From NCBI GenBank assembly GCA_022827945.1, contig JAJEIT010000006.1, forward strand, positions 62,001 through 126,000: 64,000 nt of DNA. Direction: 5' to 3'. The notes beneath the pieces are model-generated. The model saw only the letters and a program-made list of their open reading frames with translations. It was not told the origin of the DNA and made no database searches. Positions within the stretch are counted from its first letter, which is position 1. Each line of letters begins with the position of its first letter. Source of the stretch: Dehalococcoidia bacterium (GTDB lineage Bacteria > Chloroflexota > Dehalococcoidia > Tepidiformales > Tepidiformaceae). Below, one piece after another: positions 59,023 through 62,011 of the stretch. The translations under genes were made by a program, and so were the position numbers.

Positions 59023-60213
59023 ATGCGAGGGAGAGCCGTCCGCCGAGTCTGGCGACATGACCCCACTCTGTATGCCCCACCACGGTACCGCCGTGCCTGC
59101 GCGTACGAGACATTCATCCCCGACCCGCTCCGGCATGAGGACTTCGCCCTCCCTTCCGATGTGGCGGCAACCCTGTCAGAAGTGGAGCGAAAGGTGCTGG
59201 CGCTGGACGGAATGCCCCCAACGACCATGGCATCGCTCTCGCGGCTGTTGCTGCGGACGGAGTCGATCGCCTCATCGAAAGTCGAGGGCTTGCAGGCAGA
59301 CGCACGGGCGCTGGCGCTGGCAGAGGCGCAGAGGCGGGCAGGACGCAGCGTGGGGCGGCAAGTCTCCGAGATCATCGCGAACATTGACGCCATGGAAGAA
59401 GCGGTGCAGCGCACCGCTGATGCCCGCCGGCTTTCCCCCAACGATCTCCTTGAGATCCACGCCATCCTCATGGAGCGCGACGTCACGGGGCGTTCCGCAG
59501 GCAAGCTGCGGGACAGCCAGAACTGGATCGGCGGCAACGACTACAACCCATGCGGAGCAGACTACGTGCCACCTCCCCCCGAGGCGGTCGGCGATTTACT
59601 GGAGAACCTCTGTGAGTTCAGTGATTCTGAGGAGGCGCCGCCACTGCTGCAGGCTGCGATCGCGCACGCCCAGTTCGAGACCATTCACCCCTTCGACGAC
59701 GGTAACGGGCGCACTGGCCGCGCGTTTGTGCAGGCGCTGCTCCGCCGCCGGGGTCTCGCGCCACGCTTCGTCCCGCCTATCAGCGTGGCTCTCTCCAACC
59801 TCCGAGACTCCTACATCGGGGGCCTCGTCGGATTCCGGGAGGGGCGAGTGGACGAGTGGGTCTCGTTCTTCGCGTCGGCGACTGCGCGAGCGACGGATCT
59901 GGCGATTCACTACCACGGTCTTGTCGTTGACCTCCAAGAGTTCTGGCACCGCCGACTGCGAGAAACAGAGAATCCCCGCTCCCATGCCGCAGCATGGGCG
60001 ATAATCGACACTCTGCCGGAGTATCCGGCGCTAACCGTTGCCGACGCCGTGAAAGCCACGAGCCGCAGTCAACCCGCAGTCAATCAGGCATTCGGTCAGC
60101 TTGAACGCGCGGGCGTGTTGGCTCCGCTCAGCCAGTCACGCCGCTACCGGGCCTGGGAGCCGACCGGCCTCCTTGACCTCATCAGCAATCTCGAGGCAGG
60201 CGAAACCTCGTAA
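59023..60213 (+). CDS. Fic-domain AMP-transferase with N-terminal inhibitory motif
   Basis: This 396-residue Fic protein transfers AMP (or another nucleotide moiety) to a target protein. The active-site motif HPFDDGNGRTGR lies at 222-233. The inhibitory helix motif SSKVEG (84-89, consensus S/TxxxEG) lies N-terminal, placing it in class II, where Glu88 blocks ATP until relieved. A C-terminal winged-helix part (TVADAVKATSRSQPAVNQAFGQLERAGVL) suggests DNA binding, so it may regulate itself. ATG at 59023 follows the 41-bp repeats. Base composition of the leader differs from its neighbours, a hint of transfer. Confidence 0.9.
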   Translation: MRGRAVRRVWRHDPTLYAPPRYRRACAYETFIPDPLRHEDFALPSDVAATLSEVERKVLALDGMPPTTMASLSRLLLRTESIASSKVEGLQADARALALAEAQRRAGRSVGRQVSEIIANIDAMEEAVQRTADARRLSPNDLLEIHAILMERDVTGRSAGKLRDSQNWIGGNDYNPCGADYVPPPPEAVGDLLENLCEFSDSEEAPPLLQAAIAHAQFETIHPFDDGNGRTGRAFVQALLRRRGLAPRFVPPISVALSNLRDSYIGGLVGFREGRVDEWVSFFASATARATDLAIHYHGLVVDLQEFWHRRLRETENPRSHAAAWAIIDTLPEYPALTVADAVKATSRSQPAVNQAFGQLERAGVLAPLSQSRRYRAWEPTGLLDLISNLEAGETS

Positions 60214-60236: not shown

Positions 60237-61286
60237 CTAGCGGAGCGTGATGCCCGGCTCCCCCGCCCGAACGCGGCCGATGGGGTGGAGGGGTTCGGCG
60301 TCGGCAGCGAAGGCGGCTTCGAGGGCCTTCGCCTTGCGGGCCGGGCAGGCGAGGAGGAGGCCGCCGGAGGTCTGCGGATCGAAGGCGATGGCGGCGAGCT
60401 CCGGCGCGACCCGCCTGCCGACGGTGAGGTTGTCGCCGACCCAGTCGCGGTTGCGGCCCTCACCGCCGGTGTGGGCGTCCATGGCGGCAGACTCGTGCGC
60501 GCCGGGGAGGAGGGGGAGGGCGGAGGCGTCGACCGTGGCGGCTACGCCTGAGCGCTCGACCATCTCCCAGAGGTGGCCCAGCAGGCCGAAGCCGGTGACG
60601 TCGGTAGCGGCGCGCAGACGGTGGGCGACGGCGAGGTGGGCGGCATGGCGGTTGAGCCGCAGCATCGATTCGATTGCCGCGTCCAGCCAGGCGGGGTCGC
60701 CGCGGCCGCTGCCGGTCGAGGAGAGGATGACCCCCGTGCCGAGGGGCTTGGTCAGATAGAGGCGATCGCCGGGGCGGAGGGCAGCCTTGCGGAGCAGGCG
60801 GGAGGGGTTGGCGAGGCCCAGCACGCTAAGGCCGTACTTGGGTTCGTCGTCCCAGACCGTGTGGCCGCCGGCGACGGCGCCGCCGGCCTCGGCGACCTTA
60901 TCCGCGCCGCCGCGGATGATTCCGGCCGCGACCTCAGGGGGAAGATCCTCGGGGAAGGCGGCGACGTTGAGGGCGAGCACGACCTCGCCGCCCATCGCGT
61001 AGACGTCGGACATGGCGTTGGCGGCGGCGATGGCGCCGTACTGCCAGGGGTCGTCGACGAGCGGGGCGAAAAAGTCGAGGGTGGCGATGACGGCGGTGCG
61101 CGCGTTGATGCGGTAGACGGCGGCATCATCGGGCGTCCCGAGCCCGGCGAGGAGGTCGGGATGCGCTTCGGGGTCGAACGCCTCGGTCAGTGGCGACAGA
61201 ACCTGCGCCAGGGCCTCAGGGCCCGCCTTGGACGCTCAGCCGCCGCAGCCGGTCAGGTCCGTCAGCCGGATCTCGTGTGCAGTCAC
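60237..61286 (-). CDS. selD: Selenophosphate synthetase with in-frame UGA (selenocysteine)
   Basis: This 349-residue SelD makes selenophosphate from selenide and ATP. From GTG 61286 the frame reads an N-terminal EIRLTDLTGCGG, then TGA at 61238-61236 (residue 17), then ASK. SelD enzymes carry their catalytic Cys or Sec exactly here. The frame continues through VLSPLTEAF, LGTPDDAAVYRI, TLDFFAPLVDDPWQYG and AANAMSDVYAMGGE. Later come VAGGHTV, YLTKPLGTGVI, TDVTGFGLLGHL and FDPQTSGGLL. TACGAT 6 bases before the GTG supports this start. Stopping at TGA, or starting at 61013, would remove the active site. SelA, SelB and tRNA-Sec genes are not in the window. A Sec-containing SelD implies the organism makes selenoproteins. 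Confidence 0.88.
61205..61235 (-). promoter_or_regulatory. Candidate bacterial SECIS hairpin after the selD UGA
   Basis: The 31 bases immediately after the UGA can fold as GCG-U-CCA paired with UGG-CGC (a bulged U), an AGGC bulge, then GGGCC paired with GGCCC around loop CUGA. A bulged U and a short apical stem just 3' of the UGA are features of bacterial SECIS elements bound by SelB. Folding was done by eye only. Confidence 0.5.
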
Positions 61287-61292
61287 GGGACG

Positions 61293-61336
61293 ATCGTAAG
61301 GGACAGAGGCGTAGCGGGATCGGGGCGTGCCAGAAT
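61293..61336. promoter_or_regulatory. Divergent leaderless-type promoters of selD and nth
   Basis: Minus-strand TACGAT (61298-61293) lies 6 bases before the selD GTG. Plus-strand CAGAAT (61331-61336) lies 6 bases before the nth GTG at 61343. Confidence 0.55.
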
Positions 61337-61342
61337 GTCGGG

Positions 61343-62011
61343 GTGACCCCCGAACCGGACGCGATCATGGAGGCCCTGGGCGAGCTGTACGGCGAGCCGG
61401 AGTCGCGGCCCCACGGCGACGCGGTGGCGGAGCTGGTGCTGACGGTGCTCTCCCAGAACACGTCGGACAGGAACAGCGGTCGCGCGTTCGTCCAGCTCAT
61501 GCGCCGCTACCCGGGCTGGGACGCGGTCGCGGAGGCGCCGCTGGACGAGCTGATCGCGACGATCCAGACAGGCGGTCTGGCGCAGCAGAAGGCGCCGCGG
61601 ATCAAGCGCATCCTGGAGGCGGTTCGGGAGCGCACGCCGGACTGGAACCTCGCGTTCCTGGAAGAGGAACCACTGGAGGAGGCCCGCACGTGGCTGCGCG
61701 GCTTGCCGGGCGTGGGGCCGAAGACGGCTGCCTGCGTGCTGCTGTTCGCGCTGGGGCGTCCGGCGCTGCCGGTGGACACGCACGTGGAGCGGGTGGCGAA
61801 GCGGCTGGCGCTGGTGCCACCGAAGACGACGCCGGAGCAGGCGCACGAACGGCTCGAGGCGCTGGTGCCACCCGACCGCTACTACCGCTTCCACATGCTG
61901 CTCATCAAGCACGGGCGGCGGACGTGCAGCGCGCGGGCGCCGAACTGCGAGGCGTGCCCGCTGGAGGCGTCGTGCCCGAGCAGCGTCTTGCCGGTGGGGG
62001 CAGGCGACTGA
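61343..62011 (+). CDS. nth: Endonuclease III
   Basis: This 222-residue bifunctional DNA glycosylase/AP lyase acts on oxidised pyrimidines. The helix-hairpin-helix LPGVGPKTAA (121-130) carries catalytic Lys127, Asp145 is in LPVDTHVER, and the [4Fe-4S] cluster is C195-C202-C205-C211. LSQNTSDRNSGRAF is the conserved damaged-base pocket region. GTG at 61343 is set by the CAGAAT promoter 6 bases upstream; a longer reading upstream would run into selD. It overlaps the next gene by one base (TGATG). Confidence 0.94.
   Translation: MTPEPDAIMEALGELYGEPESRPHGDAVAELVLTVLSQNTSDRNSGRAFVQLMRRYPGWDAVAEAPLDELIATIQTGGLAQQKAPRIKRILEAVRERTPDWNLAFLEEEPLEEARTWLRGLPGVGPKTAACVLLFALGRPALPVDTHVERVAKRLALVPPKTTPEQAHERLEALVPPDRYYRFHMLLIKHGRRTCSARAPNCEACPLEASCPSSVLPVGAGD

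What the first reader, a model, noticed from the sequence alone, without database searches (positions are those of the whole stretch)
61205..61286. selD is a selenoprotein gene: in-frame UGA at the catalytic position with a bulged-U hairpin
Reading the minus strand from GTG 61286 gives a normal SelD N-terminus ending GCGG, then UGA, then ASK and a complete SelD. The UGA coincides with the catalytic Cys/Sec position of the family, and no frameshift is needed. The following 31 bases can form a stem with a bulged U and a CUGA loop. Standard gene calling would report a truncated 258-residue SelD without its active site. A Sec-containing SelD implies functional SelA, SelB and tRNA-Sec elsewhere and other selenoproteins in the genome.
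Basis: partly seen in the sequence, partly recalled or inferred. Interest (0 to 1): 0.75.

Follow-up and report, generated by a model that had tools for sequence, protein, structure and literature searches.

The report
Selenocysteine-containing SelD gene with recoding hairpins
A bacterial gene for making activated selenium (selD) carries a stop codon in its active site that is almost certainly read as the rare amino acid selenocysteine; this is a well-known kind of gene that standard gene callers cut short, and the RNA signal after the codon turns out to be a pair of conserved hairpins rather than the single one first proposed.

Summary
Confirmed. On the minus strand, GTG 61286 to stop 60237 is a complete 349-residue SelD with one in-frame UGA (61238-61236) at residue 17, the position of E. 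coli SelD Cys17. The same genome (a Dehalococcoidia-type draft genome, Chloroflexota) holds tRNA-Sec(UCA), SelB and SelA, and at least four further peroxiredoxin/redoxin-family genes with one in-frame UGA at the redox-active Cys position. All eight other genomes searched in the genus, and nearly all family members with SelD, keep the UGA; Cys-type relatives carry TGC/TGT there. Synonymous constraint is the strongest of the whole gene just after the UGA. Both show compensatory changes and neither is favoured in Cys-type selD. Sec-type SelD is the second most widespread prokaryotic selenoprotein family, so this is a new member of a known kind. The tandem-hairpin layout is the only possibly undescribed point.

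The parts
60237..61286 (-). selD, 349 aa selenide, water dikinase with Sec at residue 17 (GTG start, TAG stop)
   Evidence: Translation with TGA=U; TIGR00476 349.1 bits, cut-off 125; PDB SelD 3u0o E=1e-66; alignment with relatives
61236..61238 (-). Sec codon UGA, residue 17, equivalent to E. coli SelD Cys17
   Evidence: TGA in 67 of 77 readable SelD loci of the genome contigs set, TGC/TGT in the other 10
   Evidence: 3 of 5 pairs with compensatory changes among 32 relatives; more stable than synonymous recodings in Sec loci (mean z -2.17), not in Cys loci (-0.11)
61192..61209 (-). hairpin H2: GGCG-CAG-GUU-CUG-(bulged U 61196)-CGCC, proposed SelB-binding SECIS hairpin; loop 61202-61200, 33 nt after the UGA
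   Evidence: 5 of 7 pairs with compensatory changes; mean z -2.07 in Sec loci, -0.19 in Cys loci; fits the bacterial SECIS model in PMC13188914

Best explanation
This is a selenoprotein gene: selenophosphate synthetase whose catalytic residue 17 is selenocysteine. The ribosome meets UGA at codon 17; SelB carrying GTP and Sec-tRNA-Sec binds an mRNA hairpin just downstream and delivers Sec in place of termination. The hairpin bound is most likely H2 (61209-61192), with a conserved AGGUN tip; H1 (61224-61211), 14 nt long, lies between UGA and H2 and probably takes up length so that H2 sits near the distance used by single-hairpin SECIS elements. The product makes selenophosphate, which SelA uses to make Sec-tRNA, so the enzyme needs its own product to be made. 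Shown by computation: gene, UGA position, conservation, machinery, RNA covariation. Inferred: Sec insertion itself, SelB binding to H2, spacer role of H1. The confidence given is for Sec-SelD; for H2 as the SelB site it is about 0.8, for the spacer role of H1 about 0.5.
For: Intact SelD frame on both sides of the UGA and homology upstream of it. UGA at the catalytic Cys position; natural Cys versions exist, e.g. L043/L052 with CGG-C-ASK. UGA kept in all 8 other genomes of the genus and nearly every family member with a SelD that covers the N-terminus. tRNA-Sec with UCA anticodon, 71.1 bits against a gathering score of 47; SelB 321.9 bits, cut-off 242; SelA 518 bits, cut-off 268. Two family members without SelD (G020, G021) have no SelB above cut-off; five with SelD do. 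No SelU, so selenouridine does not explain selD. Four further genes with one in-frame UGA at redox Cys positions, two of these families with the UGA conserved in the genus. Highest synonymous constraint of the gene at codons 24-35: mean excess codon identity 0.33, gene median 0, sd 0.06. Covariation: 27 cells changed on both sides against 6.2 in shuffles and at most 10 in slid controls. Sec loci against Cys loci, Mann-Whitney p about 1e-4 for both hairpins. RNA model scores this site 68.7 bits; the next hit in the genome is 16.4.
Against: No protein or ribosome-profiling data. One Cys-type selD (L062) still scores 29.1 bits with the RNA model, most simply a relic of a Sec ancestor, so the model alone does not prove recoding. 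Some Sec loci in the broad set lack a clear H2 in this register. The genome is a draft in 99 contigs (95% complete, 2.9% contamination).
Confidence: 0.97

Rival explanations
1. One reading: a single hairpin with bulged U and CUGA loop right after the UGA is the SECIS element, and H2 is incidental.
For: It is the MFE of the first 40 nt; its apical stem covaries in relatives; its loop is 16 nt from the UGA, inside the 16-37 range.
Against: Loop CUGA has no G in its first two positions, which the published model requires; the loop varies in relatives; the lower stem has no compensatory change and single pairs are broken in up to 15 of 32. H2 has more compensatory pairs and a conserved GU tip: 59 of 67 Sec loci read [GAC]GT there, 0 of 10 Cys loci.
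Confidence: 0.12
2. A nonsense mutation or sequencing error: the gene is a pseudogene, or a real Cys codon was misread.
For: The genome is a draft assembly; TGC to TGA is one change.
Against: The same UGA is in all genus members and in dozens of independent assemblies across phyla; the frame downstream is intact and conserved; the Sec machinery is present.
Confidence: 0.005
3. UGA is read through without Sec (suppression by another tRNA), or a genome-wide code change such as UGA=Trp.
For: In-frame UGAs in several genes.
Against: UGA occurs singly, at catalytic Cys/Sec positions, followed in selD by a covarying hairpin pair; dedicated tRNA-Sec, SelB and SelA are present; Cys, not Trp, replaces it in relatives.
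Confidence: 0.01

Closest known systems
Sec-type selenophosphate synthetase (SelD/SPS-Sec), known in bacteria, archaea and eukaryotes (PMC4561486, PMC13188914)
   Same: Whole protein, UGA at the Cys17 position, Gly-rich loop with Lys20, Sec machinery in the same genome, hairpin directly downstream
   Different: Nothing of substance in the protein; only another lineage that carries it
Bacterial SECIS element (consensus model as given in PMC13188914)
   Same: H2 has a 3-nt loop starting with G followed by U, a 7-bp stem with one bulge, and 33 nt between UGA and loop
   Different: A second conserved hairpin (H1) lies between UGA and H2; the consensus model has a single stem-loop
E. coli fdhF SECIS (from general knowledge, not fetched)
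   Same: GCAGGU loop-proximal sequence resembles H2
   Different: E. coli has one hairpin with the GGU about 14 nt closer to the UGA and its bulged U on the 5' side; here the H2 bulge is on the 3' side and confined to this family

Membership tests
SelD (selenide, water dikinase) | Full-length equivalog HMM above curated cut-off | tested here: met
   TIGR00476 349.1 bits, cut-off 125
SelD (selenide, water dikinase) | Catalytic Cys/Sec17 and Lys20 in the N-terminal loop | tested here: met
   U17 and K20 align with E. coli SelD; both columns invariant (Sec/Cys, Lys) in alignment A1
SelD (selenide, water dikinase) | Selenophosphate synthesis from selenide and ATP | not testable with these tools
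   biochemical assay needed
Bacterial selenoprotein | In-frame UGA aligned with Cys in homologues | tested here: met
   10 Cys-type SelD loci, among them L052, L062, L093
Bacterial selenoprotein | SelA, SelB, tRNA-Sec(UCA) in the genome | tested here: met
Bacterial selenoprotein | Sec present in the protein | not testable with these tools
   needs mass spectrometry or 75Se labelling
[quoted passage not shown]
H2: loop GUU, 3 inner and 4 outer pairs around one bulge.
Bacterial SECIS element (model in PMC13188914) | 16-37 nt from UGA to loop | tested here: met
   33 nt for H2, 16 nt for H1 (sequence)
Bacterial SECIS element (model in PMC13188914) | Free energy at or below -7.5 kcal/mol | tested here: inconclusive
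   61238-61190 with both hairpins folds at -21.1 kcal/mol; H2 of this window was not folded alone; the mean of the H2 segment over 67 Sec loci is -8.8

The most novel reading that the evidence does not exclude
The selD SECIS of Chloroflexota, many Firmicutes and some Proteobacteria is a distinct two-hairpin class: a variable-sequence spacer hairpin (H1) folds out the 14 nt that would otherwise put the SelB-binding hairpin (H2) further from the UGA than in single-hairpin elements.
Probability: 0.4. Interest if true: 0.45.

Novelty: new member of a known kind. Interest (0 to 1): 0.27.

Why it matters
It corrects the annotation of a selenium-metabolism gene that standard callers truncate by 91 residues with loss of the active site, shows that a little-studied Dehalococcoidia lineage has the full Sec-decoding set and several probable selenoproteins, and points to a testable two-hairpin layout of the SECIS element in selD genes of several phyla.

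Tried and rejected
Rfam found no SECIS family at the site, at gathering or relaxed thresholds. Single-sequence folding gave no significant z-score. Formate dehydrogenase was considered as the other expected selenoprotein: the genome has only weak, below-cut-off relatives without in-frame UGA. SelU/selenouridine was considered as another use of SelD: absent. An alternative register for H1 (columns 16-20 with 24-28) was counted; it is somewhat worse overall but fits some sequences. Literature searches found no description of a tandem-hairpin SECIS, but the original bSECISearch paper and the supplementary figure of PMC4561486 on the SelD SECIS could not be read, so absence is not shown.

Full report
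Observation. The minus strand from GTG 61286 reads VTAHEIRLTDLTGCGG-UGA-ASKAGPEALAQVLSPL... to a stop at 60239-60237: a single open SelD of 349 codons apart from one UGA at 61238-61236. The longest standard ORF in this frame starts at ATG 61013 and has 258 residues. With UGA as Sec the protein scores 349.1 bits with the SelD equivalog TIGR00476 (cut-off 125), and residues 17 and 20 align with E. coli SelD C17 and K20.

Genome. G000 is 2.85 Mb in 99 contigs, 95% complete. It holds one tRNA-Sec with anticodon UCA (71.1 bits, RF01852, gathering 47), a SelB (321.9 bits, with its C-terminal part in the same frame) and a SelA on the same contig as selD, about 94 kb away (518 bits). SelU is absent. 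The nearest named public genomes are Dehalococcoidia or Chloroflexi draft genomes. Five family members with SelD have SelB above cut-off and two without SelD do not.

Other selenoproteins. A search with the AhpC/TSA family finds four genes with exactly one in-frame UGA in the matched domain: a peroxiredoxin (FYPLAFTGG-U-TSEM, L148), a peroxiredoxin-like protein (RGEW-U-PFC, L153) and two neighbouring redoxins (YASW-U-GCRYD, L154, L155). For the peroxiredoxin the single UGA recurs in all genus members, and for the redoxins in both paralogues of six other genus members; G004 and G008 lack the redoxin. L153, L154 and L155 have a GGU in a possible hairpin tip about 20-27 nt after the UGA (sequence). 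These are predictions; their hairpins were not tested for covariation.

Relatives of selD. In 60 related genomes every SelD match that covers the N-terminus has one TGA inside, except G024 (L043), where the codon is TGC and the protein otherwise matches. G024 still has SelB. In the genome contigs set (Chloroflexota, Firmicutes, Photobacterium, Rokuibacteriota and others) 67 of 77 readable loci have TGA, 9 TGC and 1 TGT at this codon.

RNA element. Codon identity beyond expectation is highest in the entire gene in the 12-codon window starting at codon 24 (0.33; median of all windows 0, sd 0.06), so nucleotides 21-56 after the start of the UGA are constrained beyond the protein. RNAalifold on 24 relatives picks the base of H1 and all of H2. 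In 32 diverse Sec loci the H1+H2 structure has 86.5% standard pairs, 8 of 12 pairs with compensatory changes and 27 such cells (shuffles 6.2, slid controls at most 10). Compared with synonymous recodings of the same codons, both hairpin segments are more stable in Sec loci (mean z -2.17 and -2.07, n=67) and not in Cys loci (-0.11 and -0.19, n=10), p about 1e-4 each. The loop-tip GU, 36-37 nt after the first base of the UGA, is present as [GAC]GT in 59 of 67 Sec loci and in no Cys locus. A covariance model of the element finds the window site at 68.7 bits and nothing else above 16.4 in the genome, so the other selenoprotein genes must use SECIS elements of different layout.

Mechanism. [quoted passage not shown] H2 (loop GUU, 33 nt) meets it; H1 (loop CUGA, 16 nt) does not. 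H2 is therefore the likelier SelB site. H1 is 14 nt long and folds out the extra distance; this spacer role is inference. The U bulge in H2 (61196) is confined to this family: most other loci have an unbroken stem, so no weight is put on it.

Known context. SelD is the second most widespread prokaryotic selenoprotein family (PMC13188914) and Sec-to-Cys conversions in it are documented (PMC1794560). RNAz had already found a SECIS in prokaryotic Sec-SelD (PMC4561486). The finding is therefore correct but of a known kind. Whether the tandem-hairpin layout has been described could not be settled with the papers held.

Noticed in passing
61190-62011 (+): The longest ORF of the divergent endonuclease III-like gene overlaps the 5' end of selD including the Sec codon; its real start is probably GTG 61343 or ATG 61367, as the upstream part is antisense to selD. 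A standard caller would both truncate selD and overextend this gene.
   Followed up: partly
L148, L153, L154, L155 (same genome, contigs C46, C45, C72): Four probable further selenoprotein genes of the peroxiredoxin/redoxin family with a single in-frame UGA at the redox Cys position; the two in C72 are neighbouring paralogues.
   Followed up: partly
L043:1501-2532 (G024): A Cys-type SelD in a family member that still has SelB about 2 kb downstream: apparently a Sec-to-Cys switch in a Sec-decoding genome.
   Followed up: partly
L062:2046-2096: A Cys-type selD that still scores 29 bits with the two-hairpin model, perhaps a relic SECIS.
   Followed up: no
59023-60213 (+): Fic-domain protein gene convergent with selD.
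   Followed up: no
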